Shown here: one piece after another, positions 11,854-38,067 of the stretch
How positions within the stretch are numbered: the stretch's first letter is position 1
Layout of the letters: every line of letters begins with the position of its first letter
Source: Tetrahymena elliotti 4EA
Taxonomy: Eukaryota; Ciliophora; Oligohymenophorea; Hymenostomatida; Tetrahymenidae
Reading direction: 5' to 3'
Length of the DNA: 64,000 bases
NCBI GenBank assembly: GCA_000231825.2
Contig: AFXF02001845.1
Location: 35,949 to 99,948, forward strand
Program-made: the position numbers and the translations under genes
The notes under the pieces: model-generated
What the model was told of the DNA's origin: nothing
What the model saw: the letters and a program-made list of their open reading frames with translations, nothing else
Database searches by the model: none

Positions 11854-14800
11854 ATGAATCATAATGTGAGCTAAATTCAGCAAGATTAGTTTTCCTAGCT
11901 ATCTTTATATGAGTAACTACTTTTAATTGTAGCTTTAGTAGCATTTAATATAATAACATTAAATTATTATCAACTCTTTTTCAAATGGTTTTATATTTTT
12001 TCAACAGCAAATCAATCTACTTACTGAATGTAGAAGGAGCAACAAATAGAAGATAACTGTTTCAAGATGAATTTCAGAGAATGGAAATATATAAATAAAA
12101 TAGTGATGGAGATTGTGAATTAGATGTGTTTGATAGTGAGTCTTAAAGATATATGTAAATGGAGTAATTGCCTTAATTTTGTTTTAATTGATTAAGAAAT
12201 GTTATTTGATATATATAAAAAGGAGCTAAAGAAGCAAAAAAAATACTAATTCTACTCTGATGGTTAAGAAAGTTAATTCATCTGTTGGAATAAATAGTTA
12301 GAGATATTTATAAAATAATGAAATGAATGGCTCATCACCATATCTAACATCCATACACAACAGCGTTAAAATAAACTATGACTTAAATTCTTAGTAGAAT
12401 GACCAAACCAGCCAAAAACTTTATCATAGAGAAGGGACTAAAAAAAAGAGTAAAGTTCTTCAAAGTGCTTATGAAAAATACATGAAAAATAGTAAATTCA
12501 TAAATAATGATGAATAAAGCATGTTAGTGTCCTAAGCTAATATTATGAATTAAGGAATACCAAATTAAGTGCTTGTTAATGGGAGTAGTCCTCTTCCTCT
12601 TACAAACTAATAAGAAGTTTACAAAAAAAATTATTTTATTATTTTATCGTTTATTTAAAAATTTGTAAAATCTCTCTTGATTTCTTCTGCAAAAAAGGAT
12701 TTTAATGTTCTACAAAATTTTCAATTTAATATCATTAATGATAAGGCTTACTATCCATCAATTAAAATAGATTCTAATGCTAAAGAAGAAAAAGGGGATA
12801 TTCTTTTAAATAGAAAAAAATGGCTAGAAAAGAAAATAATAAATTAAAATCTAACAGATTTTAAGAAGTCTTTGGTGGAAAGAAGTCAAATTTTGAGCTA
12901 TTTATTAAAAGTTCTTCTAGAACTAAAAGTATTACAACCTAATTCGATAGCTTTAATTATTTGGGAAAGTATTCTTTTAATTATCATTGTAATATAACTT
13001 GTGTTGGTTCCTATAAAAACATGTTTTGACGTTGACTTCACAAATTTAGTTTGGATGCTAATTTTATATTATGTGCCTATTATCTGCTTTACCATTGATA
13101 TATTTATTGGCTTTCATAAGGGGTTTTATTAGTTTGGAATGGCTGTAACTGATAAGAAGTAAATAGCTGAAAATTACATGAAACTTAAACTTTGGATTGA
13201 TATTTTCTGTACTCTTATTTTGATTATAAATTTAGGATTAAACTCAGCCTTATTAGATTCTCTAGCTCTGCTTCTAAGACTACAACAAGTAAATTACAAA
13301 TATTTTATGTTTACTTTTTTTAATGATTTTATTTTATGGTAAAAGATAGGAGACAAAACATAGTAGATAAATTAACATTTTTAAATTTAATTCAAATTTG
13401 CAATGTTTTATGATCTAGTAAGTTTGATTGTGTTAGTGCTCTTTGTTGCTCATATAAATTGCTGTGGATTTTATTTAGTTTCAAAAAAGACTTAAGAATG
13501 GAATCTTGCAAGCAATACTTGGGTTATGAAGCAAGGGATTGCCCATGATAGTTGGAATATAAAATACATATATTCCTTTTACTTTTCTATTGTAACTATG
13601 ATAACAATTGGATATGGGGATGTTTGTCCAATCAATGTCTACGAAATGATATATACAATAATTATGGCCATTTTTTCATGTGGTGTTTTTGGATATTGCG
13701 TTAATACAATAGGTTCTATTTTTACAGAAATTTAGTAAAAATCAAAATAATTCTAAAAAAAATTATATGATATATCAACTTACATGAATATGAAATCTAT
13801 TAAAAAGGACACCTAAATTAAAATTCTTAAGCAATTAGAATATCTAGAAGACTAAAGTGATGAAATTTTACTCAGAGGTTCAATTAGATTTTTTACTTTA
13901 AATGTTTAACAATTTTTTAATAAAAATTTATAGGAGAGCGCATTTTAAAGCACTGCTCTGTTGAGTTAAGAGAAGAGTTAATCCAACAGTATTTCGGAAA
14001 AATTTTAAACAATATTCCTATTTTAAAAGAAAATTTTACAACTTAGCTCATAGAAAGAGTAAGTCTAAGAATGAAAGAAAAGATATTAAGCCCAGGTGAG
14101 CTCTTTATAATATCAGGATAGATTGTGGATAATTTATATATAATAACTTAAGGAATAGTAGAGTATTCAGCAGTAGATAGAGATAGCTAAAGAACATTAC
14201 TTTAAATCTCAGTACGATATTAAATTAATATATTAAATTAATTCATATTTTAATTAAAATAATAGAAAGACATCAAATTAGTTGGCTTCCAATAATTTCT
14301 AACTAAATAAACATCTGAAGTATCTATATAGGCTAAAACTGCAACAGCTTTGGCATATATTTCATATGATGATTTTTACAGCATAATTAAATAAATTGAT
14401 CTAGACTATGTAAATTAAATTATTCTTTTGTTGTATTTAAAAGTTTTATTTTTCAGGAAAAGTTTTGCATGATTCGGGATTAATTTAAAAATGATAGTAG
14501 GTATTACATTAAATGCTGTAGCTGTGGTTAGTATGGCCATGACTTAAATTTATGTGGGTAGCTTCATTATGTAGTGAATAGAGCTAACTTCAGTAGGAAA
14601 ATATTTCATAATTACGTTTAAGAGAAGAGGATACCTCATTTTAGAAAGATTTAATATAAAACAAATACATTAGGATAAAATCATTAAATTAAAATAGATT
14701 TTAAATTGTATAGATGGACAGCAGTATAGGAAATATATAAGGATTATAATAACATTAATGTATTGTTAGAGATTTAGTATATTGAAAAAGATAAGGAATT

Positions 14801-16442
14801 TTTTAGAAGATGTCCCAAAATTAAATAGAATAAGCTTAAATTATTAAGAAAAATTTCTCTCTTCGAAAAATAAGGTGCCTCAAAAGTGTTGAGTATCTAA
14901 AAATCATTTAATTAAGGGGAATAGTCTGAATTCCATAATGTTGAAACATAAATGAATATCAATGATGATGATGAAGGGTAACAGAATACCTCTTCTTCTT
15001 CTTATGAATCATCTTCATAATCTTCTTAATCTAGTTCTGAAGAATCTAAAATAGCTAAACCGCTTAATGGTGATCTTAAAGAAATGTAGTAGCAATAAAA
15101 AATGGTATAGAACTAGTCTCAAGATTTAGAAAAATCTGTTTATTCTGGAACATATGTTTCATAAAAGAATATTTAATTTCAAAATATGGAGATGTAATAA
15201 TTTTTTGAAACCATTGAAGAAATACCAGAATAACAGCATCTTGAAGATTTAAGAATAAGCAAAGAACTTGAAGGAACTTAATAATTGATGCTGGATCTAA
15301 ATGATCCAAAATCAATTTAGTAAATAAAGTAGATCGTAAATATGGATCAAAATAATATTTTTAATGAATAAAATTTAATTACATAAGATTATAATCCCTA
15401 ACCTTAACAACCTTAATTAAAACATCAGTTTGTAAGGAATCTTTCAATGAATAGTTCAAGCAGTAAAAATAAACAGTAAAACTTAGTGTTTTAAAATAGA
15501 ATGTAAAGTAATAGTACTACAAGCAACAATAATTCAAGTAGTTAAACTGAAAAAAGACATCAAAGTGTAAACTTAAATCTCACAGATGAAGATTAGTCTT
15601 AATTTAAGACAAAACTTTCTGAAATTTAATAAAACTCAACTAATTCTAAAAAAGTTGAAAAAAATAACGAAAAGCAGTAAGTTCTCTCTTTTATAGAATA
15701 AAATTAAAAAAGAAACAAAAAAATCATATAATAGCCATAATAAATCTAGTTAATGTAACAACAATAAGAGTAGCAGTAAGCACTGGCATCTTTAATGGAG
15801 AGTTTTTTTGACTAATTTAAAAAATAAGTTTTTTAAAATAAGTTTTAAAATAATTAGGCAAGTTAATTTTATTAACCACAACTAAATTAGCAGTTTTAAT
15901 CAAATTAAAAAACTTAAAGTAAACGAATAAACCTAGATCTTATAAATAGTAATTCAATAAGCAGCAAAGAAGGTTCAGGTGTTGTTTATCAGGTTTAAAA
16001 TGATACTAATACTATGACAATTGGGTCTGAATAAAAAATAAAAGCTGAAAATACTTAGAACCCTACTCATTTACAAGAAAATTAAGGTTACACAAATTCT
16101 GTACATAATTTAACAATAAACAATAACTATTAAGCTGAATATCATCACATTTTTGGCAAATTGCAATTTAAGTTTGATAAAGTTAAAGAATTTTAAATAT
16201 ATTACCCATAATTTAACATTCAAAATATTATTAAAAGTTATAGAAAAATGAAATACTAATTAAACCAAAGATTAAAACCTAAAAAAATCAAATTCTTCCC
16301 AGGAACAACACAATTGATTAATCCCTCTCCTACTATTTTTAAAAAGTAATAAAAGCTATTTTAATCATCAGTATTTAAAATAAATGATACAAAAGGACAA
16401 GTAAATAACTAGGAGGTCGATCTTACATTTAGTATTTAGTGA
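11854..16442 (+). CDS. CNBD potassium channel with zinc knuckle, paralogue 1
   Basis: Seven exons: 11854-11912, 12008-12154, 12223-13288, 13346-13877, 13934-14211, 14266-14409, 14457-16442; 1403 aa. N-terminal motif EGATNRRQLF at 29-38. Six membrane segments begin near residue 308 (IALIIWESILL). The putative S4 has almost no arginines, so voltage sensing is doubtful. S5 ends in AHINCCGFYLV; the pore reads TMITIGYGD with G513-D516, the potassium filter. A C-linker follows, then a cyclic-nucleotide-binding-like fold with SPGELFIISGQ. The phosphate cassette is altered: GFQQFLT replaces FGE, and the usual Arg is Gln (VSIQAKT). A CCHC knuckle lies at C762, C765, H770, C775. Next comes EKDKEFFRRCPKIK, then a roughly 450-residue Q/N/S-rich tail, and the C-terminal element starting FGKLQF at 1308. 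Family knowledge: relatives are CNG/HCN/EAG-like plasma or ciliary membrane channels. The start is the ATG in phase with intron 1; the second intron (12155-12222) is less certain. Confidence 0.85.
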
Positions 16443-16762
16443 TTATAGTTTGTTTTTTTATATTAAATTTAAAAACTCTCTTTTTGTTTTCTTACATATT
16501 TTTGTTAATAAAGTCTTTAAATTTTAATCGTGAGCTATTTTTTATCTAAATAATAAGCTTTCAAATTAAGAAATTTATTTTCATTTACTACTTAAAAGTA
16601 CTGTAAAAGCAAGAATAACATTATTAAAAAAACTTTAAAAAATAAAGATTAGTTTTGAATTATATTTGCTTATGATTGATTGTTGATTACAAACAGATAA
16701 ATTAATTAAATAATTCTTATCAAACAAAGTAGAAATAAGTCAGTCAGTAAAAGGCATTAAAG
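16443..16762. other. Short spacer between channel paralogues 1 and 2
   Basis: 320 bp of A/T-rich DNA between TGA of one channel and ATG of the next on the same strand. Nothing recognisable; it must contain the promoter of the second channel. Confidence 0.4.
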
Positions 16763-19700
16763 ATGAATAATTTGACATAACGAAATGATGCTTTAATGAA
16801 AATAAATGATGAAAGCAAAAATGAATCGATTTATTTTAAAGAAATGACTATTGAGCAAATGATTTAGTATTTTTTTAACATATTTTTTTAAATAATATTT
16901 GTTAAGTGTTTTTAGTAATCAAAATTAAGAAAAAGTGGAAGAATCTAATTATTACATTAACAATCAAGGAGCAGATAATAGAAGAAGGCTCTTTAGCTCA
17001 AATCATGATTTTAATTTTTTTTAAAGAGCTAAATCCACTAACTAAGATATAATAATTTCAGATTATCCAGACAAAGTAAAAAACATCATTTTTTATGAAT
17101 TTATTAGACTTGCCAATACAATAATTCTACTTGGAAAATAAATAGAAAAAATATCAATAAAATATTTTTTAAAATTGAAGCAAAGCTCATAAGGAAATAG
17201 AAAATCAAGATTTTTTGTATACGATGGTATTATTTATTTGTTTGTTTTAATATTTTCATCTTACAATTTGTCTAAAGATTAAACCATTGACCAATTTGAC
17301 AGAGATAAAGACAATAATGTAAATAAATCACAAGAAGATTCTAAAACAAACACTTTTAGAGACTCTCAAAATACAGAATCAGTTTCTAGTCTTTTTATAG
17401 GACAATTGTCAAGAGATAAGAGGAGACATGATACTAACTTGATAGAAGGTAGTTAGGGATCTTAAAGAAGTATATTTAGAAACTAAAGGCCTATGAGATA
17501 CAATACTTTTATTTTAAGTGAATAAGAAGATTAACAGTCAAAAGTTATTTAGGCTTCTAAGTTTAAGCAAAAGAACTAATCCTTTAATAAAAGTGCTGCA
17601 ATGATTGTTGATTAACCAAACAATATTTATGGCTATAAGAATCATCTGATCTCTCTAACCTACTTAATAAAATTTGTTAAATAATTATTACTTCGTGTTG
17701 CATATAAAGACTATAGAATCCTACAAAAAAAGTAGCTGTAAATAATATCTGATTAATCAATCATAGATTTAGGTTATATAAATAAGATGTATGAATTGAA
17801 TCATGAAGATAACATTATTAAACGAAGAAATAATGTTCTTTAGCTACAAAAAGGATTACAGAAAGAAAAAGAAGGAAAATTAAAAATTATTTTTTTTAAT
17901 TTTTTTTATAATTATATTTATCTTTAATGGCTTAGATCAAAAGCATTAAATCCTTCAACATTAGTTATCATTATTTGGGAAATATTCTTTTTGTCATTAT
18001 TAATATTTTAACTCATGATTCTTCCGATTAAAGGTTGTTTTCAATAAGTTTAATTAGATTCTTAATATTACTCATTTATTCTTTACTAGATACCTATTCT
18101 TTGTTTTATTATTGATATCATTTTTGGTTTTCACACTGGATATTATGAGCTTGGTAAGCCAATTATGAATAAGAAAAAAATAGCTATTAATTATTTATAT
18201 CATAAGTTCTGGATAGATTTTAGTTGCACTCTCTTGCTTTCTTTTAATTTATATTTTGGGTCAAATATGATTGATTTTTTAGCTATGTTTCTAAGAATTA
18301 ATTAAGTAAAATTTCTTAAAATTATTTCGAAATTAACAAAAATACTTTTATTCCTTAGATGAAAATCAAAATTAAAAAAATTGACTAGCATTTTCGCCTC
18401 TCATATAGATATGCATTTGTAACATCCATTCTGAAGCTCATATTTTTAATTGTAATTTTAGCTCATTTAACTGGGTGTGGATTTCATTTAGTAGGAGATT
18501 ATTCTAATTAACTCTAGAACAGAGTAAAGTATGGAAATGATTATTATTACTCCTGGATACATTATTCTGGTTTGTAAGATTAAGACTGGTTTAATCGTTA
18601 TATTTGGTCAATTTATTTTTCTATCATTACTATGATCACAATAGGATATGGTGATATTGTTCCAATCAATTTATATGAAAAAATATATGTGATAGGAATG
18701 ACCTTTATATCGTGTGCTACTTTTGCCTATTGCATTAACACTATAGGAAATATATTTGCAGAGAGGCATAAAAAATAAAAAGACTTTGAATCCAATTAAT
18801 ACTAACTTTAATCATATCTAGATTACATGGAGTGCTCTTAGGAAACTTAATTAAGAGTATTAAAATACTTTGAATATCTTAATGAATAATAAGACGAAGT
18901 TGTATAAAATGGTATAACTTTAATTTCTTTGAAATAATTTATCATTTAATTTTGTATTTAGGTTAATTAGTTTTTACCAAGTGTCCACCTGATCTAAAAG
19001 AAGAAATTATCTAAGAAAGAAATTAGAAACTTCTCAAACTGATCCCTCTTTTTAATAAAAACTTTAGCAACGAGTTTATCAATTTGTGTGCTAAATTTAT
19101 GGAAGAAAAAAGAATAGGGCCTGGAGAAAAAATTCTCATGGAAAATTAAATTCCACAGTTCTTAGTTATTATTGTTAAAGGAGAAGCAGAGTATTTCTTT
19201 TAAAATCTATAAAACAAAAGACCACTGCAATTAATCTAAGTAAAACCCAAATTTCATTAATTTTAGTAATTGTTATTGAGTCACTATATTATCCACAAAT
19301 ATCAAAAGATCAAATCTTTATAAATTTAAATATCTAAAAAAGTCATCTTTTAGAATAATGACTTTCAGTAATATTATTAAAATATTCCAAAATAAATTTA
19401 AAGAGCCTTAATTTAAGCTAAGAAATTTATTCAACTATATCAATTAAATTTTAATTTACTTTTGATTTTGAATGATTACATGAAATAATATACAATTAAA
19501 TTTTTACTTTTCTTGATTTTCCATTTAAGTATTTTTGTAAGTACAAAAATAAAAATTTTTTAGAATAAAGCATTTGATAATCAATCCATAATAATTAATA
19601 AAGAAACAAAATGATGTAGAGTTTTTTTATTATTAAAAAGCTAATAATATTTTTATTTTAAGAAATAATTATTTTTTATAACATATTTAAAAAGGGAAAA

Positions 19701-21583
19701 GCTTTAGGATTGAAACAATTTTTAACTGAAACTCCAATACCTCTAGCTATTCGTGCTAAAACTGTCTCAACAATCATCTAAATACCTTACACTTAATTTG
19801 TTAATTTAATAAAGAATTTTTCATATGATTTTGTAAATATTTCTTATTAATGAGTTTCTAATTATTAATATTTTTTAAATCTTAGGAACTATTTTGTTAG
19901 ATAAGAGATCAAATGATATTTGAAAATCGTTTTATTGAATAGTGTTACTCTTGTTTATAATATGGGCATGATATTTCAGATTGCCCATAAATACATTACA
20001 AAGCATAAAATTTTTTGTTTGCTAAAAAGGTTTTTCACTCTAAATAATAAAAAAGAGATGTAAGTTTTATGAGACAAAAAACAAAAGAGGGGAATACTTG
20101 GGAAGAAAGAGTACATGTAGCTATGAGTCTCAAAATGAAAAGATTAGAATTAGTTCAAGAGATCTATTAGGACTATAACGATATTTGTATTTCTGACTTA
20201 ATACAAATTTAAGAGCAAGATAAATTCTTTTTTAAAAGATTTCCTAAAATAAAGCAAGAATAAATTAATAGAGTATATTGTATCCGAAAAAAAACTTAAA
20301 GTATTCATTAATAAAATTAGTAAAATAATTAAATAGATTTATTGTATTCTCTATCAAAATCTTATAATTCTTATGACTCTGATTAGAGTCAGAATATAAC
20401 TTCAAGTTCAGATTCTTGTGAAAGTGAAAATTCAATATGTATTTCTGATGCTGGGTAAAAAAAACTTTCAAAATAGCCATCATCTGCTATTATGAATGAT
20501 CTAAAAAATAGAAAAACATCTGAATTAAAAAATATTACTGAAAATTAACTAGATGTAATCTTAAATTAAATTAATGATGAAGATGTAAATAAGAGTAAAT
20601 AGAGTTCCCAAATTAGATTATCTGATCTTAAAAAGAAAAATCATAGTATATAATTATTTGATTATCTAATGGATTACCTAAAGTAACAAAAAAACCCCTC
20701 AGAAAGTGCCAAAAATGAAATAAATAAATAAGAGAGCTCAGAGAAATTGCATGATTAAAAGCTTATTGTTTCTAATTCAGTTTAAAATGAGAATAATTCT
20801 AACTTAGATTTTCTGAGAATAAACTTCTCAAAAGAAAATGTCTCAGATGATAAAAATAGCTTTTACTAGAATACGAGCAATGATATGTCACCATGTCTGT
20901 CTAAATATAAATAAATTTAAAGCATCTAATAGAACCAAGAAAAATATATCAATCAGAAATCAATAGATAAAAAATTTTTGCAAATACTTTAAAAGCAGAG
21001 CAATTAAATTAATTAGCTAAGAAGTAATCTAAAAAATCTGAAAGGAAATGAAGGAGGATAACCAAATATAAATTTGACAGTTGGCTTAGATCAAAACAGC
21101 TAAGAAAAATTATTCTTTAACCATTATCTGTAAATTTAACAATTTCTATCATCCTGGAAAGTGCAAATGTAGAAACAACTGAATACTTCATCACTTAAGC
21201 CAAATTTAAAAAGTCTAACAAGCATAAAGGAAAATAGGACCTAGTCTTAAAGATAAAAATCAAGGAGCAATAAATAAGATTCAGAAATTCCTTTACAAAA
21301 AGAATAAATTGTCACTGATAGCATTCAATTGAACTATGTAAATAATAACTTTTTTGGGAAACTTGGATTAGGATTTGAAAATGTTAAAGATTTCTAGTAT
21401 TATTTTCCAAAATTTAATATGCTTAATATTATAAAAGGATATAGAAAAATTTTATAAAGGTAATAGCAAAAGCAAATTAAATAATCTGGTTATTTCTTTG
21501 ATAAAAAATCTGCCCATAGGCATTTAAAAACATTTCTTCCTAGAAACTCAATTAGATTCCCTCAAAATAATTAAGACTTTTGA
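16763..21583 (+). CDS. CNBD potassium channel with zinc knuckle, paralogue 2
   Basis: Exons 16763-16866, 16916-18305, 18359-18911, 18962-19239, 19695-19832, 19886-21583; 1386 aa. A 51-nt in-frame stretch at 17227-17277 looks like a further GT...AG intron; if removed, the protein is 1369 aa and later numbers fall by 17. Motifs in order: GADNRRRLF at 53-61; S1 around STLVIIWEIFF; weakly charged S4 (AMFLRINQ); S5 AHLTGCGFHLV; pore TMITIGYGD with the filter starting at G594; CNBD-like fold with GPGEKILMENQ and a phosphate-cassette Arg retained in LAIRAKT, but FGE replaced by KQFLT. The knuckle is C841, C844, H849, C854 (CYSCLQYGHDISDC). Then QDKFFFKRFPKIK, a long polar tail, and FGKLGLGF from residue 1311 leading to YYFPKFN. 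The CNBD intron (19240-19694) is 455 nt, far longer than its equivalents. Predicted K+-permeable, cyclic-nucleotide-related channel. Confidence 0.83.
19240..19694 (+). other. Unusually long intron with inverted repeat in channel 2
   Basis: The equivalent intron is 52-95 nt in the four sister genes but 455 nt here. Coding resumes with GKALGLKQFLT, directly alignable to the sisters, so no exon is hidden inside. It contains a perfect inverted repeat TATTTTTGTA-AG-TACAAAAATA at 19530-19551. It may be a small AT-rich insertion. Confidence 0.55.
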
Positions 21584-22506
21584 TTTTAATTTGAACCTAC
21601 TAAAAATGGTGTTTTATCCTCTCTAAAAAAGGATCTATTATTTCTGGATTATCTGAGATATCTTGCTTTAATTTCTTCATATTTAAATTTTTACATGAAA
21701 AAGTACTTCTTCTCTATGAAATTTTTTCATCTTTATTCTACTTAAGATTTATATTATTGATAAAAAATCATTCATATTTTTCATGTCTCCATTTCCCCTG
21801 AGAATTACATTTAAAAAATCATAAATTTCATATCACCGTGTATATTAACCGCAATATTTTTTTCAGATTGTTTTTCTGAAATTAAATGCCCAAAATTAAT
21901 TGCAATTAAAAAAAGATAAATTATCAATTAAAGTTATCTTCTATGCATAAATTTTTATTAAAAAAATAGAATAAGATGATATTTAACTAAAAGTATTAAT
22001 TTAAATTGTAAATAATGAAAAGCTATAATTTTATTATAAAACATCTATTTATTAAAATAAAAAATTGATACATTTTTTCATATTTTAAGAAATATTTTAT
22101 GATGAAAACTGTTTGTTGAAGAAAAAAATTAACATCTTTTTAATAAAATAAGTAGAATTTAAAATGTAGAGTTACTTTTTTATTATTTTTTGCTTAATTC
22201 AGAATTTTAACTAATTTTATTGGCAACATTTTAAAAAGAATATCAAATTCACCTACTCCCACTTATTTTTCAATTATTAATTGGTATTATTATGTTTAGC
22301 TTATATAGGTTTTATGTTCGTAAAATTTAAGTGCGATAATGTTAAACTTTATTATTAACTAAGAAATTAAAATACATACATGATTATTAATTTATTATCC
22401 ACAGATATAGTAAACTAATAACATAAAAATAATATATAAGTAGAACAATTTAACTCAATACCAAAATTCATTAAAAGAACTGGTAGATAGATTTTAAGAC
22501 AATTCT
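21584..22506. other. Spacer between channel paralogues 2 and 3
   Basis: About 920 bp. The first 250 bp contain slightly more mixed sequence with T-rich tracts, but no frame stays open and no similarity to channel exons was evident by eye. Rest is A/T homopolymer sequence. Confidence 0.4.
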
Positions 22507-25500
22507 ATGATTCCAAAAGACCAAGCAATAATACCTATCAACTTAGGATAAAACATAAGTTTCATGCAAAACAGTTCCAGCAATTATTCAAATCACTAAA
22601 TTGACAATGAAAATTTTAAGTAACTTAGCAAATATAATAATGTGATTTACATAATTAATATTACTTACTTTTTAAAAAAGTCCTTTGGAGTTTTATTCAA
22701 TTAACAAAGAAGGAGCTTAGAATAGAAGAAAGTTATTTTCATTTCAAAATAAAAGAGAAAACGATGATATATAAGATGATGCAATGTTTAGCTCTAACAA
22801 TTAATAAAGCTCTGTTTTTGGTGAAAAGATTTAATTTTTAAATAGGGATGATTAGATATAAAGTAAATCTCATAAGAAATCACACAAAAGCTCCAGATCT
22901 TCTACTGTTGTATAGGGATCAATGCACAGTGATCTAGATAGATTCAGGAAAGAATAATGCAGATAAAATTTGAATACTTCCTATAATGTAGATGAAGTAC
23001 AAGAGAATATAGCTTTCAAATAAATTAAATAAGAAGATCCATTAAATTAAAAACCGTATAGTGCAAACTTGTAAATAGATAATCAATAAACAAAATCATT
23101 TTAAAATGAGAATATTGAACTATAGTATGCATAATTATAACAAAATTGTTGTTAGCAATCTTAGAATTAATGTACCATTGAGAATAGTAAAACAAATATT
23201 AAATATTTCCACATTAAATTAATATTTTCTAATGCTAATATTTTCAATATTTTTAATTAAAAAAAGGATTAAATATTTCTTTAAAATTCGTTAAATAAGT
23301 CTGGCATAGAATTCTAAGTAGAGACTTCAAAATGATAAAGTAATTTCACTACTAAGCTATTTCAGATAAATGCTCTTTCTATAATAAAAGTTAAGAGACG
23401 AATTGTCTTACAAACAATAGCATTAGTAATAAATTTATTCAATAAAAGGAAAAATAATACGAAATAATGTTTCCATCAAACGAACAAACCTGTATATAAA
23501 AGATTCAATAGATTATACATAACAATTTTATTTAATTAGGCAATATTTTCTTTTGCTCTGATTTTAATTTTTCATTATATAACCCTCTTATAATCTTAAA
23601 AGATATTTTTCTATTCTTTGCCTGTTTAGCTGTTATAGGATACTTAGTATTTTACATCTCTATTTATTAAGTGATTGATTAAACTACTACATCATTATAA
23701 ACTATAGCTATTACTTCATTAGGGATTATATTATTAGATATACTCTTAAAAATTAAAACCTCAGTTGTATTTTAATCTGATGTTAGTTTTGATTCTTAAT
23801 ACATTTGCTCAGAATATATTTCTAAAGAATTTAAATCAGACATTATTTTTATCAGCTTTGTTGGACTCTCATTTATAAATTAAAATATTCAGCCTATATT
23901 TTTACTCCTAAGCTTTCTTATCATGGTCATAAAGGTAAATTGTTTTGTTTATTTTAATTAAAAATTTAATGAAAATAATCTTTAATAGTAAATATTTTTA
24001 TATAATTTAAATATATAGATATACAAAAGACTATTTGCGAATGGTTTATTTAAAAAAATGTAGCTTCAAAATATTCTCAAATATCAAATAATACGTTTTC
24101 TTGCTATAATAGCTTTTGTTATTCATTTCAGTTTATGTGGATTAAATATTATTTCTAGCATCTCTAAAAGGTCTGATTGTTGTAGTACTTATCTAATAGA
24201 AAGATATGAAAACGGTCAAATAAATTATTTATAACTCTACTAACAAAATTTTCGGATTATATTCTCAAGATTTCTAAATTATTATTAAAGATATCACTAT
24301 ATAAATGATAATTTGAATGATGTTGAAGCAATATATTTAGATATCATTATCATTATAGACTTGATCATTTTCCTTTATTACACAGTCATTTTCTTTTTCA
24401 CTTACCTAAAAGAATTTAATTCTTAAAATATGAATTAAGAATAAATCATAGATGCTATTTCTTTTCTAGATAACAGAAATGTTTCTCTTGAAACGAAAGC
24501 TATTTGTGTAGAATATTTAGAAGGTATGAATAAATGTATTTTTCAACAAAATCTTAAAGGTAAAAACAATTTAGTTTTGTTTATTTTGAATTATTCTTAA
24601 TATTTTTCATTTTATTAAAAATTAGGATTAAATGCACTTGAAAAATTTCCATTGCAAATAAAATAAAAAATAAAAATTGAAAGCTATTATGCCTTATTAA
24701 CTTAAGTTGAGTAATTTAAAAGTAATTTTAGTAAACCATTTTTGAAAAAGCTAGCTTTTTATGTGAAAGAAAGAGTCTTTCATAATGATGAAGTCATTTA
24801 AAAGAAGAACTTTGTTTTAGATAAATTATATTTGTTCTAGAGCTAAAATCAATTAAACTATTTGCTAGAATATGGTGATGTTTCTAAAAATCTAATCGAA
24901 CTCTATGTAATTTATTATTCATCTTTTATTATACCTATAAAGTTTTCTTTCTTTTAACCTGTCCATCTATTTTTTTATTTATTTCTTTTTTTTTAAAAAA
25001 GTAAAGAGATAGAAGCAAAGTATATCCTGACCTAAAGTATTTTTTGTCTGGAATATTGTGTCCTTATAGTATTTAAAGTTAAAGTAATAATATAGTCCCT
25101 TTTATTACTATAGAAGATTTCTTAGCAGTCATCAAATGCTTTGATAAGGATTATGTAAAAAAATATTTTATATTTCAAATTGAATAAATAAATTAATTAA
25201 TTCTTATACTTATAATAAATAAGGAAAAATTTTGTATGATTAAAGATAAGATTCAATTTGAGCTTATTTCATTTAATAGATGTAATAGCTGCTTGTAGTA
25301 TAACCATGACATATTGAATTGTTAAATGCTACATTTTTATCCTGATAAAGGAATATTTTATAAACTATCAGATGTCTAACAGAGATAGTTTAAGAATAGG
25401 TAAAAGTATGAGAAATAAAACTCACTTAAAATAAGAGAACACATAAGATATGATTTAATACTAATTAGATTGCGTTAAGTCACTCAATAAAATGATCTTA

Positions 25501-26933
25501 GTAATACAAGATATTTATTCAATTAGATTCTGACTTTATAAGATTCTCACTTTTATAAAATACTACCTAAAGTTAAGCTTTACAAAAGAACTTAAAAAGA
25601 AAAATTTCTCAAGTAAACTTAACTAAAATCTAATTTAGATAATGTATTTGCCCCATCAGAGGACTACTCTTCTTCTCCTTTACAATAGCAACGGTCTTTA
25701 GCTCCGCGTAGTACTTTCATTAACTCAGGATAAAGCTAACTTGCACATTAGTAACTATTTGAAAAAGTACGTATATCAGATGAGTAAAATTAACTAATTC
25801 CTTCTATTGAAAATGGCAGTTAAATGAGCAATAATATTGTAAGAAAATCAATAAAAAAAGATAGTTAAAAGCCTATCCAAAGAAACTCTCTATCTGGATA
25901 AACTGCTGTTGGGAGTACTTCATAATTTCGATCATCTTAAGTTATTTCATAGTAAAATGTATAAAATCTTTTCACATAGAATTACCATGGTATTTATTCA
26001 AACTTATCAGATAACTTGAATAGTCAAATGAAGAATGAACTAGGTTCTCCAACAAGTAATATTATGATTAATCATGCTGATGATGGAAGCTAAAATGTAA
26101 GCTAAGTTTTTGAAATGTAATCAAATCACAATGAAGATGAAGAAATCAACAAAATAAAAGTAATAAATAATAATAATTTGAATCCTAATTAAAATATGAT
26201 TCCAGAATAATAATCACAATTAGTCTAAGAACCCCCTAACTATATATATGCTTTAAATGGATAAAAAGATGTCTAATCTATTTTATCAAGTATTGACATA
26301 TCTGAAATGCAGTAAAAATCTTAACAATTCGATACTAGTTTTATTGACAAAAAATAAAATCTCCAAAGATTAAACAGCAAGAAAAAAACATTTTAACTAT
26401 CTGTTTTATATCCAATGATGTAATAATCTTATTCTTAGCAATCTTTCTCTGTTATAGATAACTAAAAGCCTGTCTAAAAAAAATCGATTCGAAACTCTGC
26501 TATGTTTCTAGATGAAGAAGACTATGAAAACTATCAAATATTAAAAGCATATTTCAATGAAATAAATAAAAAAAAAAGAAGAAATAGCTCTAAAGAAGAA
26601 TCCTCTCCTTATTTTTAGAAAGATGATACTTTAATTAGTTCTGATAAAAAATCTATGAAAGAAATAAAATTGTTAATTCAATAAGTAAATAGAGATAATA
26701 ATTATTCTGATCACTTATTTGGTCCTCTAGAATTTTTGTTTGATAAAATGTAGCAATTTAAAATATATTACCCATCATTTAACTGTGAGAAAGTCATATA
26801 AAAGCTTAATAAAAAAATAGTTTAAAATCAAAATTTCTAAAGAAATAAAACTCTCTTGACATAAAAATAAAAAACCATGGCTTCTCAAAAACAAAAATTG
26901 AATAAAATTGAATAATAATAATAACAATAATGA
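22507..26933 (+). CDS. Pore-less CNBD channel-like protein with zinc knuckle, paralogue 3
   Basis: Seven exons: 22507-22619, 22681-23186, 23267-23934, 24019-24559, 24626-24906, 25002-25154, 25224-26933; 1323 aa. Five of its introns match the sister genes in place and phase, so homology is secure: EGAQNRRKLF at 48-57, S1 at LYNPLIILKDIFLFF, S5 FVIHFSLCGLNII, S6 YLDIIIIIDLIIF, C-linker with SLETKAICVEYLE. Between S5 and S6 there is no TxGYGD filter and no recognisable pore helix; the segment reads FRIIFSRFLNYYQRYHYI. Predicted S4 lacks positive charges. The CNBD is also reduced: the cassette reads YSIQSQS and lacks the Arg. The knuckle is intact at C774, C777, H782, C787 (with NH in place of GH). 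The C-terminal element starts FGPLEF at residue 1253. Open frame over 4.4 kb argues against a pseudogene. Inference: a non-conducting regulatory or dominant-modulating subunit. Confidence 0.8.
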
Positions 26934-27567: not shown

Positions 27568-30500
27568 TCATGAGTGAATAAATGAAACCATATTACTTCT
27601 TTTTAAAAATCCGTTTGTTTTTTATGGGAGTAATTTTCTTCTCTTACTTTGATGCATAGTCCATTTTAAAGAGGTTGCTTTTTTAGTCATATAAGGATCT
27701 CTTAATTGGTAGATAATAAGGGATTAATATTTTTTGTAAGCTTTTATAATGCTTGATTAGTTATATTTTGGATAGTAGTAAACGAATTCTTTAGCAATAT
27801 CAAAGAAGAACTCACACTTGCCAAACAAATGAAAATTTTACATTTTATTATCTTGATTCATTTCAACTTTTGAATTTTCTTTTTAGAGTTCCTTTTAGCC
27901 ATTATGAGAAGAAGTAATACTCTATTGTCTATTATTTTCTTTTGAAGGTTCTGATTAACTTTATTTATTACTGGGTGTTAAAGTTGATGGTAAATTAAAT
28001 CTCATTGCTTTTTTCTTTTTTTTAGTATTTAATTACTAACTTGTCAGCTGCTACATCCCAGAAACTTAAAAGTAAAACTTTTCTATTTAATTTTACATTT
28101 AACTGATAATAGAGTTTAGCATAGAAAGGGCTGGAGTTCCACTATTTTACTCATTTTATTAATTACTCTGCTAGTGCTGTTAATTTTATTATTGCTGTTA
28201 TTACTAAATCATAATGTTATTCTAGCTATTAATTTAACTTGCATCCTAAATTATTGGATCTTCATCTTAAATTGATCTTGAATGTTCAAAAGTGAACTTA
28301 AATTAATTCATATTACTCCTTTCTGAAGGTGAATTGAGTTAATTATAATTTATCTGAGAAGGTATTTATTGGTAGTTTTATAAGGAATGAAATTATTGAT
28401 TTTGTTATTGCTATTATAGCTGCTAAAACTACTATAAATGCTATTAAATTAATTACTGTTATTACATATATTACAGTTGCATAAATTAATTATATTTCTC
28501 TTTAAGGTTACTTTAATGATTACTTAAGATAGATCTTCTTTGGTTTTATGGGTTTAGTGTTTTTTCTATTGTGGTATGCTGTTAAGGATAATTATTTTAT
28601 TATGTTTAAATAGCATCCTCTTAGTACTTTTGTGAAACTTAATCAAAATAAATTGGGTTAGGTGAATTTATGATATTTTGAGAATATTATTCAAAGTTAT
28701 CTACTCTGGAATTTCTGGGTGTTTTAGTATTTGATTTGGATCTTCGTGGCTGAAGCTAATACTAATAATATTATTAATACCCAGGTTCATTTTTTTTATA
28801 AAAATTTTGGTTGCTTGCAATATTTAATGAATCAGTGTGAATTTCTGAATCAAATTTAGAATCCAGAGGCATTTAGGTGGGCATTAGGTTTGGATTACTA
28901 TTGAGGCTGTTATTAGCTTATTCCTATTATTACTATTATTATTGCTGTTATAATTAAGGCTGTTAGGGGTATTTTTCAGCATCACTACTGTCACTTGAGT
29001 CTTCACTTTCACTTGTTGTAACAAAAGAAGAAGATGATGATGAAGAAGAGCTAATTGCTTATTTTTAGTTGAATTGATTAAAGAAGAAATTACTCTCACT
29101 TTTTTATTACTTAAATCCTTTCATTTTCATTTGAGGGTAATTGTAGGAAACTTCATCTTTTTCTTCATCTTTTTTTAAGAAATAAGAAAGCTTTATTTTA
29201 GGACATCTTAAATAGAACTCCTTATCTTTTTCTATCATCGTACACTCTTGCTGCACATCAGTTTCTTCATAATCCTCATATATTTCTTTTACAAGACTCC
29301 ATCTAATCAATTTTAATCCTTATCTTATAGTTTCATTATTACTAAATGAAGAAATTTATTTCTTTTTGTCTCTCTTATTTGTTTTTGTTCTATCTTATTA
29401 AATATTTAAGACCAACTTGTTAAAATAAAGAGACTTATTTATTTTGTAGCACACTTAAGGACAACTATAAAGGTTATGCTAGAATTATCCACAACTTTTA
29501 CAAGGATATTAATACCTTTTGTCATTTAAAAATTGATCCCTCAAGCAGCATGCTTTTTCCTTTTAAGATAAAGATAACTTTAAAATAAATATAGGAGTAA
29601 ATTAATTAATAGCTTACTCTATCTTAGCCAAACTACTTTATTATTTCTTCCCATTAATGAAAATCAACATATGCTGCTGTTGTAATACCCTTGCTTCTAA
29701 TAGATATTTCAGATGGCTATTAAGTAAGAAAGCACTTTAGATCGATCATTTTTTCATCATACTTTACATTTTATTAAAAATTATTATTATGTTCAATTCT
29801 ACTTTTATTAAACTTAAATTACATCACATAAATTCATAAAATTTCCATTGTTGGCTATAAAATACTCAGTCTGTCCTTTAGTGACAAAAAATAGATGTTT
29901 TAAGAGCTAACCCTTCTAAACAAGTATTTCACCTGGTGCAAACCTTCTTTCTTTCATTACCAGACTAAGTTAAATAAGAAATTGTTAACTAAATGTTCCT
30001 TTGATTAGTTTGATTGTTTTAAGGATTCTCCCAAAATATTCTTTAAGAAGCTCATCTTTTATTTCCTAAGAACATGTTTCTAGGATTTTAGAACCTTTTA
30101 ATTTTTAATTTTAATTACATCAAAAATATATCATCTATTAATTTATCTTTACCTTCAGTAATATTTGAGTCTTGAAAATCTTCAATAAATTCTAGATACT
30201 TTAAAACTCTCATTTGTGTTGAAAGCTGAACTTATCTTTCATTCATATAACTTGAAATTAAGCTTTGTTTATTTCTAAACTCTTTAGATTTTCTCTATAT
30301 ATCTTAAATAATACTTCCTATTAAATTTACACTGAATGCAAATAAACCACAACTAATAAAGGCCATAGCTAAAACATATATCTTTTCATAATAATTTGAA
30401 GGGTGAATGTCACCATAACCAATAGTACACATTGAAATCATAGTAAAATATATAGAATTGATATATTATTCACCAGCAGAAGCATTCAAAAGATCATTTT

Positions 30501-32144
30501 GTCTAATCCAATTATTAGTTTTTCCTTGCTGTTCACTATAAACCCCAACATAATGAAATCCACAGCCAAAAATATGAATTGAAAGAAATATTAAGCAAAA
30601 TAATTTAATCAGTTCCTATAGTGAAGAAAGCTTTTAATAAAGCTAAAGATTTAAGTTTGTTCTCTCTATTTTTTCTGTAATCTAATTTTGTTTTAACAAC
30701 AAAAATAAATTTTATAATATTTCATCAATTAAAATTCAATTATAAAAAGAATTTATTGATTAAAAGTTGATGAAAAATTATGAAAATATTTACTGAATTA
30801 ATCATGAAAATAAGAGCAAGAAAATTGAGAAATTTATAATCCATGATGAAGTTAATCGTTAATAAAGTTAAACTGATCAAATTAGTTTTAAATTTTTCTT
30901 TGAAGTATTTTTCATAAATTCTAATTCGAGTCATAACAACTTCACCAAATTCATAAAATCCTGTATGAAAACCTATAAAGATATCACCAACAAATATTCC
31001 AACTTAGAAGTAATTCATAATTTTTAATATTTGCTTTTAAGATTCATTTAAATCAAAGCTCCATTCGATAGGTATAGCCAATAAAAAGAAGAGCACTAGA
31101 AGAAGAAAAATAATTTCCCAAATAAGAATGAAAGGATTGTTTGGCTTGAAGATAATAACTTGTTTTAAAATCTATTTAAATAGTTTTTTACAACTAATCA
31201 TTAAGTTGAAAACAGATTTTTTAAGCATGGAATCTTTGTGAAAATCAGAAAAATTGTAGCTAGAGAAATTGATTTCACGAACAAAATTAATTCTTTCGAA
31301 AATATTTCTGTGCTTAACTTTTTGAATTTCATCAATTCTCTTTCTTTAGCTTTTCTGAATGATGATTGCATTATCACCAATAATTCTATATTAAAGAACT
31401 GATAACATGTTATGCTTTTTGTACATGAATCTTACTAGAAGTGATTTTACAAATTAAAGGAGATATGAAAAAATAACTATTTAATTCCTAAGCTTTATAG
31501 CTTCTTATCCTTCTTCATTTTATTTTGTGTTCACTATTTCATCTGCTTGATTATTTTCATATTAAAAATAGTCTTCAGATATACCATTTCCTATTGTAAA
31601 CGGTTGTGGATCTTTATTCTACTATTAATCATTTATAGATTTAATTTTCTACTATATATATGAGTTTCCCTTTTTTTGATTTGATTTTATAATCTGCTGA
31701 ATATCATTAAGGTTAATTTCTTTTTTAGATTTTGTTCTTGCTATTTCATTCACTTTTGAGTTCCTTTTCAGATAATCCGTAGAAGTTACATCCAAATTTC
31801 TTGATTGATGATTCTCTTCTATAGCTAGTTCTAATTTAGAATTTGTCTTATCTTATCTTTCGGAATAGTCTATATCTCTATTTTTCAGACTTTGATTCGA
31901 AAATATATTGTCATAACCATTAAATTCTTAAGAATAGGAATTAACATCACCTCCTTCACTTGCTTTCCTATTTAATATGTTTGTTTAAGAGAAAAAGTCT
32001 GATCCATTAAACATTCTTCTTCTATTATTTGCTCCTTCAACATTAATACCATAATCGTTACTATGGAAATAATTAATTTTTTTTAATAAAGAAAGATTTA
32101 ACATAAGTAAAATACGTTGGGCTTATGGCTTGCTGAAGACTCAT
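27568..32144 (-). CDS. CNBD potassium channel with zinc knuckle, paralogue 4
   Basis: Six exons: 32144-32116, 32060-30794, 30681-30153, 30094-29823, 29761-29618, 29559-27568; 1410 aa. N-terminal EGANNRRRMF at 18-27 after a very short first exon. S1 is at FILIWEIIFLLLV; S2-S3 carry the shared IDxFIGFHTGFYEFG-type element; S5 HIFGCGFHYVG; pore SMCTIGYGD with the filter from G520. CNBD-like fold: APGEILVQKGQ, cassette Arg kept (ISIRSKG), FGE replaced by KCFLT. Zinc knuckle at C767, C770, H775, C780 (QH instead of GH). Then EKDKEFYLRCPKIK, an acidic-serine cluster, long poly-Gln segments written in mixed TAA/TAG/CAA codons, and FGKCEFFFD from 1326 with YYYPKYN. Intron positions match the plus-strand copies. 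Predicted K+-selective. Start: the only ATG giving the phase-2 first intron shared by all paralogues. Confidence 0.83.
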
Positions 32145-33395: not shown

Positions 33396-36300
33396 TCATT
33401 CTTTGGTTTTTGAATGACTTGAATTTGGCTACTGCATCTGTAAATTACTAAATTTTAGCTTTGTTGTGGGAGATTTCCAAATATCTTAAATAGAAACTAA
33501 TGAATGAACAGAGCATTCTTTAAATTAAATTTTTTTTTTAAGCTATTTATGAAGGTTTTTATTATTTTTATTTTATATTTTTTTGAATATTCTTATAATA
33601 TTTGATAAATTGCCTTTAGGGTAATACACAAAGTATTCCTTTTGCTTTTCAAACTCAAATTTCAGCTTTCCAAAGATATGATTTTTATTACTAGAGACCT
33701 GTGCATAATCAACTTATTAAAATGTACTTTCATGAATTGATTTATTTCCATCTATTTAAATCTAAGTTTTAGAAAGCTGCTTTACTTTATTAAAAAATGT
33801 ATTATAATCATTAGAAGCAGTTGCATAAATTGTTTTTTTCTTTTACAAATTGTTTTATTAGTTTCCAATAGCTTATTTATTAAGATTTTAGAATTACTGT
33901 AAAATAGTAAATTAAAGCATATTCACGCTCTTTTGTAAAGATTTTATCTGTTTATTAAAATTATTCTAATAAGAAGATAATTCATCTTGATAATAATCCT
34001 TATTTTTATTTATGTATGAACCTTAATGAATAACTGAAGCATTGTCTTCATAATTATTTTTTTATTGGTACTATATTGAGATTAAAGAATCATTATTGGT
34101 TTGTTACTGCTATTAATTTACATTATTTGAGACATTTGTATTTTTATTTACTTGTGGTTAATTTGATTATAATAAACTTTTACTATTTGCCTATCCAATA
34201 AGTAATTAAGAAGAAGAACCTCTTTATTCTTATTCTTTAATCTCATCAGAATCCTTATTAAATACTACTTCACCGAGATAAGATTAAAGCGGCTTTGATA
34301 TTTTAATAGGAAGATTTAAATAATTTTAATCAATTTAAGATTCAGAATTTTATTTCAGTTGTTTCTACAGAATATAAGATCTTTGATATTGAGACATAGA
34401 GGTGCTATTAATATTTTAATTGTTTATTTATTCTTAATATAAATCTAATCTAATATTTTCTTCTGATTACGGAATTATTTATGATGATTAAAATGATTCC
34501 TCTATTTCTTATTCTTCTTTTATCATGTTAATTGCTTAATTTTAAATTTATTTTCCATTGACGGTAAAATTTTAAAATACGTCTCCTATAACTTAATCAA
34601 TATTCTAAGGATTATCCTCTTTTTGCTAATGTTATTAATTACTAAATGAATCATTAAATTGGTTTTTAGAGTTTGTTGTCGAACTATTTTTAGAAACATT
34701 ACTCTCATCACTACTGCTATAATCATCACTAACATCGTCATCTTCTTCTTCTTCTTCATCTTCTATCCAGCTTTAGATTTATAAATGGAATATATCATCC
34801 ATATTTGAATTTTCATTATCTTTTATTCTCAGCCTCTTTTTCTATACATTTATTATAGGACATCTTTTAAAAAATTATCTATCACTTTCAAGAATTTTAA
34901 CTTCTTATATAATATTTATATTTGAATACTTATTGTAAAATTCAGAAACTTTTTACCACCTTAGTATTCTTAAAAAATTTCTAACGAGAATTTAATTTTT
35001 AAGTGTTGGGTATTTCATTCTTTTTGATATTTATACCCTTTTAGTTCTTTCTTATTAAGATGAATAGCAATGCCTTTAAACAATAATATCTTTTCTGGGT
35101 ACTAAGTGTAGTTAAGGGCAATCAAAAATATTATGTCTGAATTATCCACAGCTCATGCACTTAATATCACTATACTCTTCATTTTATAACTAATCTCTCA
35201 AATAGCAAAATTTTTCCTAAAATTAAATTAAAGTGAATTTGAGTATTAAAAGAGTTTAAAGAGATCTTACCTAATCAACTAAATAAAGTTTAAGAGTGTC
35301 TAAAAAATCTTCCATTGAAAAATATGCAACTATTGTTTTAGTTTAGCATCTTATAGAAATATCAACTTATTATCCAGTAGCAAATAATTTAAAATCAACA
35401 ATATTGACATCCTATTTAGAAATAAAAAAATAATTTTAGAATTTAATTTCAAAGATGATTTACATCAATCTTAAGCAAAGATCTTTGATATTCTTTATTT
35501 TATATAAAATACTCTATTTCTCCCTTTTAAATAAAGTATAAATACTGAAGAGGTGAACCTCTTGTAAACAGAATTTCTCCAGGACCAAGTATTTTTTCTT
35601 TCATCTTTAAGCTTATAGCCTATAGGAAAGAAAGACTAAAATATTTTTTTAATATTGAATTGAGCAAAATTTTAGTGTAATACTCTTATTAAACTTCCTC
35701 TCTCAACTCTTTTGGGCACTGACTCAATATTTAATACCCTAAAAATAACCAAACAGTTTTCATCAAAAAAATTTAAGAAATTAAAAAAATTATTTGATAG
35801 AAGAATATTCAAATTAAAATAAAAAATTTGAAAAAAGAATTCATATTTTCAGTTTGTAGTTACCTTTTGCTATTGTGATTTCTGACTCTTAGTGGAGGTA
35901 TTCTATATACTTGATTATTTTTATGTAAGTTTCTTTTTTTGTGCCTTTAAATTTAAGGTAATTTGATATTTCATATCTTTTTTATCTAAAAATTTGCTCC
36001 TTTTAGTTAATTTCTGCAAATATAGTGCCTATACAATTTACACAATAAGCAAATAAACCACAAGTGATAAAAGTCATAAAGCAGACATATATTTTTTCAT
36101 AAATATTTATGGGTGCAATATCTCCATATCCTATTGTAATCATAGTTATAATCGTAAAATATATAGAATTTATATATAATTCAACCCATTCTGATTCATC
36201 TAGTTTTTACATAGAAATCCAATTATTTTAAGGATTAAATTATCCACTTTATTTAGAATAAATTCCTATTAAATTAAACCCACATCCCCAAAAGTGAGCC

Positions 36301-38067
36301 ATTATTAAAATATATCCACTTAATTTACTTAATTAATATAGTGTAGGGAATTTGGAGGATATTTCAAAATGCTCATCTATTCTATTTATTTTTTTTCTAA
36401 TCTTAAAAAAATAATTTCAAGAACATAAAATAAAATTAAAAAGAATAATTTATACTTGATCAAATCTTAGAATAACTATAATACATTCTATGATACTGAT
36501 TTGCTTAATTAAACTCATAATAATCAAAATTATAGAACATATCTCTACCCAGAATTAAAATTTAACATAAGATTTTGCGATTTTGATCTTATCTAGCACT
36601 AATATACCTGACTCATAGTATCCTGTCTAGAAAGCTATAAAAATTTCAAGAATTAAACAAACAACAGCTGCAGAGTAGAATGATAAAAATTAAGGCCTTT
36701 ACTAAGCCTAAATAAAAAAGCATAATTTAATAGGAATTATTAGAATATGAGATACAAGTTAAAATAATAATATGATATTTAAGATAATAATAAGAGCATG
36801 ATCAGGCTTATATGCATATCCTGAAAATATTTGTAAGAAGTGACTTTCAATCTTTTACTATAATCTCTCTTTAATTTATTAACAAAAACTTTTATTTTTT
36901 TACTTTTTTTTAAATCTAGTATCAATAAAATTTTTTGACATTGATTGTGATTGAAGTGGATCAAAATACTTGCTTTGATCTTATTCTTCTATCTAAATTT
37001 AAGATTATTTTTACTGAGATAAAAATAAAATATTTTAATTGGTTTTATCATCAATCAACAGTAAGTGTATTTTTTTAAGGTTTATAGGGTTTTTATAAGC
37101 TATTTTTTTAAGTAAATTCATAGTAAACCTCTTCAAATAGGTGAAAATTACGAGATAATTTTTAATAGATACTGTATTTTCTAATTCTAAATCGTTTTGG
37201 ATGCTGCTTTACTATTCTTTAAATATTCTTTATGAGCTCATCATGTCATCTTTTTAATGGTCTTTAGAAATAATGAACTATTTAGATTCAAATAAATTTT
37301 TCTAATAAAATGATTCTTTTTTTTAAGGACTCCTTAAATCACCTAAATTATACGAAAATTTCCTTTTTGATGCCTTATTTGGTGAATCCTCAAGTTTAGC
37401 ACTAACTCTTTCATTAAGCCAAGCAATTTATTTTTGTAAAAAACTAAATGTCTAGTTTGGAGAATTATCTATTGTTGTCTAATTATTTGTATATATTTAA
37501 GTATTATTTTCTCTATTTGTATTTGAAAAAACTGTGTTAGCATAATACTCATTTGTTATTTAACTCTGCTCTTTCTTTAAGCTTATTTAGTCTTAATCTA
37601 AATATAACAACAAAATATATTGATTTTGAAATGCTGAAAAAATAGTTGAATTAAATTTGATTACAATTTGTTGAATTTTGATCTCTGCCATTTATATTAT
37701 TTAAAGGATATTAATGATAATTTTGCTCATCAATAAAATCTTAATCCTAAAAATCTTCAACATCTTATTTAGAAAATTACTAATTTCTATAAGATCCCTA
37801 AAATGAAATATTATTTTCTATTCCCTCAAAGAGCTTTCCCCTGTTTCTAGCCCCTTAAACATTAATCTTATAACTTGATTTGCTAAATATTATAAATTTT
37901 AATAAACAATTTTAAACAACTATAAATAGTCATTTATTTGAGAATATATTTTTGAAAAAATTTTGTTTAAAACAAGAATACTCTGCTAAGTTGAATGAAG
38001 AATTGTAATTGTTGGAGATATTTAGTGATATATCATTATTTGATAGCTTATTTTACTGCTCTTTCAT
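33396..38067 (-). CDS. CNBD potassium channel with zinc knuckle, paralogue 5
   Basis: Seven exons: 38067-37982, 37882-37665, 37597-36456, 36401-35864, 35738-35464, 35411-35271, 35216-33396; 1406 aa. N-terminal QGARNRGKLF at 38-47 (one Arg changed to Gly). Six membrane segments; S5 MAHFWGCGFNLIG; pore TMITIGYGD with the filter from G573; S6 GLFAYCVNCIG. CNBD-like fold GPGEILFTRGS, with the cassette Arg kept in ISIRCQT and FGE replaced by KLFAT. Zinc knuckle C820, C823, H828, C833 (CMSCGQFRHNIFDC). A related block ends in FFKRCPIIN. An acidic EEEEEDDD run follows, then a Q/N/S-rich tail and FGKLKFEFE from 1315 with YYPKGN. The exon carrying the knuckle again has its first Cys as the 20th codon. 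Predicted K+-selective channel of the same family. Confidence 0.83.

What the first reader, a model, noticed from the sequence alone, without database searches (positions are those of the whole stretch)
11854..38067. Five-gene cluster of channels that join a CNBD to a CCHC zinc knuckle
Seen: all five proteins carry C-X2-C-X4-H-X4-C directly after the cyclic-nucleotide-binding-like domain (for example CYSCLQYGHDISDC), always starting at codon 20 of its exon. Known: this knuckle (zf-CCHC) binds single-stranded nucleic acid or mediates protein contacts in retroviral nucleocapsid and RNA-binding proteins. I know of no described ion channel with it. Inference: a channel family whose cytoplasmic tail may bind RNA or a partner, expanded by local duplication.
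Basis: partly seen in the sequence, partly recalled or inferred. Interest (0 to 1): 0.82.

Follow-up and report, generated by a model that had tools for sequence, protein, structure and literature searches.

The report
Zinc-knuckle ion channels of ciliates
A large family of ciliate ion channels carries a small knuckle that probably binds zinc, right behind its cyclic-nucleotide-binding domain; I found this pairing in no other channel group and in no paper I could search, so these channels may be controlled or wired up differently from animal and plant channels.

Summary
Five linked Tetrahymena genes have C-X2-C-X4-H-X4-C behind a cyclic-nucleotide-binding-like domain, the first Cys always codon 20 of its exon; four have a K+ pore, the fifth shows none. 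The feature is not local. In 51 sampled stretches (228 kb) around pores and CNBDs of this genome it occurs 42 times, always downstream, same strand, of a pore or CNBD. Of 108 relatives from three searches, 99 have the exact motif, 2 keep all four ligands with changed spacing, 2 end before it, 5 lack it. Named carriers: Tetrahymena, Paramecium, Pseudocohnilembus. The module's profile matches solved zinc knuckles. AlphaFold places it just after the CNBD alphaC helix, confidently in one relative, less so in a closer one. Best reading: a structural zinc knuckle capping alphaC, with a basic segment behind it, serving gating or assembly. RNA binding is weakly supported: in relatives the usual nucleic-acid-contact residues vary. 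Seven searches of an open-access library found no description. Zinc binding and ligand geometry are untested.

The parts
12018..16442 (+). Gene 1: channel-CNBD-knuckle protein (core exons 12140-13877, 13934-14211, 14266-14409, 14457-16439 plus TGA; homology also at 12018-12164)
   Evidence: splice model; Pfam; tblastn with the T. malaccensis orthologue P0002
13541..13726 (+). Gene 1 pore region with TIGYGD filter
   Evidence: PF07885 match C119:49489-49674
14514..14555 (+). Gene 1 knuckle CCSCGQYGHDLNLC
16923..21583 (+). Gene 2: channel-CNBD-knuckle protein (5' end uncertain)
   Evidence: tblastn; open frame
18587..18760 (+). Gene 2 pore region with TIGYGD filter
   Evidence: PF07885 match C119:54535-54708
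19943..19984 (+). Gene 2 knuckle CYSCLQYGHDISDC
22646..26933 (+). Gene 3: diverged paralogue; knuckle exon and C-terminal motif kept, pore not recognisable; start is that of an open frame, not verified
   Evidence: open frames; knuckle exon and C-terminal homology; no pore match listed; no GYG/GFG in 23901-25000
25281..25322 (+). Gene 3 knuckle CNSCLQYNHDILNC
27568..32062 (-). Gene 4: channel-CNBD-knuckle protein, orthologue of T. thermophila P0006
   Evidence: tblastn; open frame
30307..30477 (-). Gene 4 pore region with TIGYGD filter
   Evidence: PF07885 match C119:66255-66425
29461..29502 (-). Gene 4 knuckle CKSCGQFQHNLYSC
33396..37890 (-). Gene 5: channel-CNBD-knuckle protein, orthologue of T. 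malaccensis P0005
   Evidence: tblastn; open frame
36018..36188 (-). Gene 5 pore region with TIGYGD filter
   Evidence: PF07885 match C119:71966-72136
35118..35159 (-). Gene 5 knuckle CMSCGQFRHNIFDC

Best explanation
These are ciliate members of the CNBD channel superfamily (fold of CNG/HCN/AKT/SthK channels) with an added module of about 60-70 residues. The CNBD's last helix (alphaC, consensus DYExFCxIKDxI) runs into a CCHC zinc knuckle, then C-P-x-x-H and a strongly basic stretch (QxR....R). Shown: the domain order, conservation of the four ligands in relatives, sequence similarity to solved zinc knuckles, and predicted placement just after alphaC. Inferred: the knuckle binds one structural Zn2+ and caps alphaC, the lid helix that moves when a cyclic nucleotide binds (general knowledge of CNBDs). 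In about half of the aligned members the CNBD keeps the phosphate-cassette Glu and Arg; in the orthologues of window genes 1, 4 and 5 it does not keep both. So the knuckle plus basic stretch most likely serves as a fixed docking surface (neighbouring subunit, partner protein or membrane lipid) that couples the CNBD to gating or assembly, in the place where CNG channels carry the CLZ coiled coil and KCNH channels an intrinsic ligand (both from general knowledge).
Against: Zinc binding was not measured and no coordinates were available. In P0003, the T. thermophila orthologue of gene 1, the knuckle is only at block pLDDT 65-70. None of the five window knuckles passes the zf-CCHC cut-off: one scored, 15.9 against 20.8 bits; of six relatives scanned whole, 2 pass, 2 score below it and 2 have no zf-CCHC match; of the 42 sampled knuckles only 2 are among the 59 places of 20.8 bits or more. 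The sampled stretches were chosen around pores and CNBDs, so the 42 of 42 says little about DNA far from such genes. One sampled CNBD channel (L054) lacks the knuckle and one family-like channel (L048) shows none within 2.6 kb. The docking or gating role is inference; no partner is known.
Confidence: 0.6

Rival explanations
1. The knuckle and the basic stretch behind it bind single-stranded RNA (or another nucleic acid), so that the channel senses RNA or anchors transcripts or RNPs at the membrane or cilium.
For: Profile similarity to RNA-binding knuckles (LIN28, Air2, TUT4, nucleocapsid); the next 45 residues carry mean net charge +8.4; in the genome sample position 2 is Y or F in 24 of 42 and position 8 is G in 15 of 42.
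Against: Across 100 knuckles in 99 relatives, position 2 is Y or F in 22 and position 8 is G in 15; the knuckle's mean net charge is -0.18. One knuckle per channel unit, whereas LIN28 and many nucleocapsid chains show two matched stretches (Air2 3nyb shows one). Basic cytoplasmic stretches of channels also bind phosphoinositides (general knowledge).
Confidence: 0.12
2. The CCHC site is a sensor: reversible Zn2+ binding or cysteine oxidation changes the alphaC position and so gates the channel.
For: The ligands sit directly behind the CNBD lid helix, and 29 of 64 aligned members lack one or both cyclic-nucleotide cassette residues, so another input to the CNBD would make sense.
Against: Strong ligand conservation and CCHC chemistry are typical of tight structural zinc sites (general knowledge); no evidence of exchange.
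Confidence: 0.15
3. The Cys/His pattern is an inherited remnant or chance pattern without metal binding.
For: Weak zf-CCHC scores for the window copies.
Against: 5 matches against 0.02 expected in the window; 42 of 42 sampled matches on the coding side of channel/CNBD genes; ligands kept through spacing changes in P0056 and P0083 while the rest of the 14-mer varies.
Confidence: 0.05

Closest known systems
CNG/HCN/KCNH/plant AKT-SKOR/SthK channels (CNBD superfamily)
   Same: Ion_trans, Ion_trans_2 and cNMP_binding matches in gene 1; K+ filter; same predicted fold through the alphaC helix for the relative P0078
   Different: With the module profile, the only channel among 52 PDB sequences matched is the T. 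thermophila protein 7w5z_C, although 127 distinct PDB sequences match the channel P0078
zf-CCHC zinc knuckles (PF00098): nucleocapsid, LIN28, Air2, TUT4/7
   Same: Identical ligand spacing and significant profile match; some family members pass the Pfam cut-off
   Different: One knuckle in a channel tail; window copies score below cut-off; contact residues and charge differ in relatives
CLZ coiled coil of CNG channels and the intrinsic ligand of KCNH channels
   Same: A module just behind the CNBD alphaC helix (for CLZ see 7rhl; KCNH recalled)
   Different: Those are a helix and a short strand, not a metal-binding site (recalled)
Ciliate 'cation channel family' or 'cyclic nucleotide-binding domain' proteins (T. 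thermophila, Paramecium annotations)
   Same: They are the same family
   Different: The knuckle is not in the names shown; CNBD is listed among the top domains of species-specific Tetrahymena genes (PMC6564038, passages)

Membership tests
CNBD channel superfamily | Six-transmembrane Ion_trans core plus pore domain | tested here: met
   Gene 1 above the Pfam cut-offs for Ion_trans and Ion_trans_2; pore matches for genes 1, 2, 4, 5; none found for gene 3
CNBD channel superfamily | K+-type selectivity filter | tested here: met
   TIGYGD in genes 1, 2, 4, 5; gene 3: none found
CNBD channel superfamily | C-terminal CNBD fold | tested here: met
   cNMP_binding above cut-off for gene 1 (39.5 bits); P0006, orthologue of gene 4, just under it (27.4 against 27.5); fold match for relative P0078
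Cyclic-nucleotide-gated (ligand-binding) channel | Phosphate-binding cassette Glu and Arg | tested here: not met
   Orthologues of window genes 1, 4 and 5 (P0001, P0003, P0006, P0005) do not have both; 35 of 64 family members do. Genes 2 and 3 were not tested
zf-CCHC zinc knuckle | C-X2-C-X4-H-X4-C | tested here: met
   5 of 5 in the window
zf-CCHC zinc knuckle | Score over Pfam's curated cut-off | tested here: not met
   Window: 0 of 5; best 15.9 against 20.8 bits. Some other family members pass it
zf-CCHC zinc knuckle | Tetrahedral zinc coordination | not testable with these tools
   No coordinates; only block pLDDT 88-90 over the knuckle of P0078 and 65-70 in P0003
Nucleic-acid-binding CCHC proteins | Aromatic at position 2, Gly at position 8 and basic knuckle (features recalled) | tested here: not met
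   22 of 100 Y/F, 15 of 100 G, mean net charge -0.18 in relatives; 24 of 42 and 15 of 42 in the genome sample
Nucleic-acid-binding CCHC proteins | Binds RNA or ssDNA | not testable with these tools
   No assay or structure

The most novel reading that the evidence does not exclude
Ciliates have expanded a large class of ion channels whose CNBD lid carries a zinc knuckle and basic tail that bind RNA, making them RNA-regulated or RNP-anchoring channels of the membrane or cilium.
Probability: 0.1. Interest if true: 0.9.

Novelty: new variant of a known kind. Interest (0 to 1): 0.58.

Why it matters
CNBD channels are among the best studied channel families, and what follows the alphaC helix bears on how ligand binding reaches the gate and how subunits assemble (general knowledge). 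A conserved probable metal module at that very place, in a large channel family of ciliates, would be a new regulatory design. It would also give a concrete handle (four ligand residues) on why ciliates keep so many K+-type channels, some of which have CNBDs that seem to have lost their ligand-binding residues.

Tried and rejected
Local novelty of the five-gene cluster: rejected by the genome sample and the protein searches. Chance motif: rejected. Non-channel CNBD proteins carrying the knuckle: of 31 sampled CNBDs, 13 lack it and 12 of these have no listed pore upstream; but 12 CNBDs with a knuckle also have no listed pore. Only 150 of 309 pore candidates were scored, so this does not settle whether knuckle-bearing non-channel proteins exist. 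A solved structure of the module: the sequence of 7w5z_C (entry 7W5Z, a T. thermophila complex IV model) contains a knuckle channel, but 'cyclic nucleotide' occurs nowhere in the main text of two papers on that complex (PMC10060162, PMC10227065; passages on five terms seen), and the chain is not among the 50 best matches shown by structure, so I do not count it as a solved knuckle; it is not excluded. The C-terminal YFPxN-like motif: a loose pattern is found after the knuckle in 78 of 94 members with at least 150 residues there, but also in 25 N-terminal stretches of up to the same length; a first, stricter pattern gave 42 of 99, and 5 before the knuckle. Paper searches on the subject without a description: 0 papers each; general, 21 papers, 20 listed; 17 papers, 15 listed; 2 papers; listings only, except passages of PMC6564038. 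Two further searches were about 7W5Z. PMC1557398 is not held. My first count of cassette residues was off by one column and was redone. An earlier count said 7 of 8 CNBD-plus-pore pairs; the count is 6 of 7.

Dropped rows: for the alignments A2 and A3 I chose 62 and 64 relatives, all with the exact motif, and A1 likewise, so invariance of the four ligands in them is by selection and is not used as evidence. The motif counts were selected by the pattern too; only the other ten positions are informative there. The tally of 108 uses all relatives returned. In one search I used only zf-CCHC places that reach 20.8 bits by themselves (59), not those that pass with neighbours.

Full report
What was checked. 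The window lies in a genome of about 90 Mb in 134 contigs. The genes use TGA as the only stop; the closest named relatives of gene 1 are Tetrahymena proteins, 87% identical over the searched region. The motif C-X2-C-X4-H-X4-C occurs five times in the window against 0.02 expected. A looser protein-level scan found the same five plus one pattern with other spacing at 18715, in another frame than gene 2. In all five the first Cys is codon 20 behind an AG.

Gene anatomy. Gene 1 was spliced by hand with three introns of 47-56 bp and scores for Ion_trans (38.5 bits), Ion_trans_2 (39.6) and cNMP_binding (39.5), all above cut-off. Orthologues place gene 1 at 12018-16439, gene 4 at 27571-32062 and gene 5 at 33408-37890, the last two on the minus strand; gene 2 spans about 16923-21583. 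Gene 3 matches the orthologues only in the knuckle exon and the C-terminal motif and shows no GYG/GFG in 23901-25000. Its longest TGA-free run of 685 codons is unusual but within reach of shuffles (mean 279, largest 695 in 300 shuffles), so it may be a decayed or a non-conducting paralogue.

Genome-wide. A protein query with the gene 1 knuckle exon finds 38 places (weakest E 0.098) and a second query, from relative P0007, 141 places (weakest E 0.18); the weakest may be chance. Pfam zf-CCHC gives 101 places, 59 of them at 20.8 bits or more; of these 59, 28 lie within 700 bp downstream of one of 150 listed CNBDs and 31 behind a CNBD or pore. In 228,041 bp there are 42 motif matches on both strands, and all 42 lie on the same strand within 2.6 kb behind a listed pore or 0.9 kb behind a listed CNBD; 30 of 38 pores and 18 of 31 CNBDs have one. 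Two of the 42 are window genes 1 and 2. The control in this sample is the other strand and the upstream side of the same stretches, not remote DNA. The distance from the Pfam CNBD end to the first Cys is 79 bp in 10 of 18 cases and 76-160 bp in the rest. Of the eight pores without a motif, six look like other K+ channel types by their pore sequence (my reading; some have weak matches to the family); L054 has a CNBD and no knuckle; the pore half of L048 is clearly of this family (1.7e-56 to P0037) but no motif lies within reach.

Relatives. One search gave 34 proteins, 30 with the exact motif. One search gave 62 new ones, 58 with it. Search 3, in which only the 7984 best candidates were scored, gave 12 new ones, 11 with it. 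Of the nine without, P0056 and P0083 keep C, C, H and C with X3 or X6 in place of X4, P0089 and P0108 end before the module, and P0020, P0031, P0033, P0034 and P0096 lack it; the organisms of these five are not named. Named carriers belong to Tetrahymena, Paramecium and Pseudocohnilembus; most carriers of searches are metagenomic without an organism name, so a wider spread inside ciliates is likely but not shown. P0086 and the T. thermophila protein P0093 pass Pfam's zf-CCHC cut-off (25.0 and 23.3 bits); P0098 and P0095 score below it and P0006 and P0105 have no such match. So the domain pair can be seen by a routine Pfam scan in some members even though I found no paper on it.

What it does. 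Conserved features in the A3 alignment (64 members) are D (94%) and C (81%) of the alphaC segment, P (84%) behind the last Cys, then H (73%), R (86%) and R (95%) (ligands left out because members were chosen by them). The 14-mer itself is about neutral and the 45 residues behind it carry mean +8.4. Y or F at position 2 and Gly at position 8 are present in 22 and 15 of 100 knuckles of relatives, and in 24 and 15 of 42 in the genome sample; the typical pattern of nucleic-acid binders is recalled, not from a call. I therefore prefer a structural knuckle that caps alphaC and offers a contact surface, with RNA binding as a minority view. The cyclic-nucleotide cassette has both Glu and Arg in 35 of 64 members, but not in orthologues of window genes 1, 4 and 5, so those CNBDs may be ligand-free scaffolds.

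Known or new. Channel, CNBD and knuckle are each known; CNBD is listed among the top domains of species-specific genes in Tetrahymena (PMC6564038, passages). Seven searches of an open-access library bearing on the subject listed nothing, by title or abstract start, on a channel with a knuckle; most subscription journals are not covered. I rate it a new variant of a known kind.

Noticed in passing
window 22646-26933: Gene 3 keeps the knuckle exon and C-terminal motif but shows no recognisable pore or K+ filter; possibly a silent subunit or a decaying paralogue.
   Followed up: partly
PDB chain 7w5z_C: A T. thermophila 1471-residue 'Cyclic nucleotide-binding domain protein' with a full channel and a knuckle is listed as a chain of entry 7W5Z, a complex IV model; whether this is a true subunit, a partial model or a wrong assignment is open.
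   Followed up: partly
C-terminal ends of genes 1, 2, 3 (about 16146-16250, 21341-21445, 26586-26813) and of relatives: A short motif (like FGK..F.F....F..YYP..N...II..Y.K) recurs near the C-terminus after a long Q/N/S-rich tail; in P0003 it is predicted with block pLDDT 79-93 (811-840) inside an otherwise low-confidence tail.
   Followed up: partly
relative P0007 (T. malaccensis, 2153 aa): Holds two pore-plus-knuckle units in one predicted protein: either a tandem fusion channel or two merged gene models.
   Followed up: no
G000:C120:19588-20088: Seven zf-CCHC matches in tandem, including the strongest in the genome; looks like an ordinary poly-knuckle nucleic-acid-binding protein.
   Followed up: no
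N-terminal parts of the five genes (e.g. gene 1 near 12040): A short segment N..GA.NR(R/G).(L/M)F recurs in open frames at the 5' end of all five genes; role unknown.
   Followed up: no
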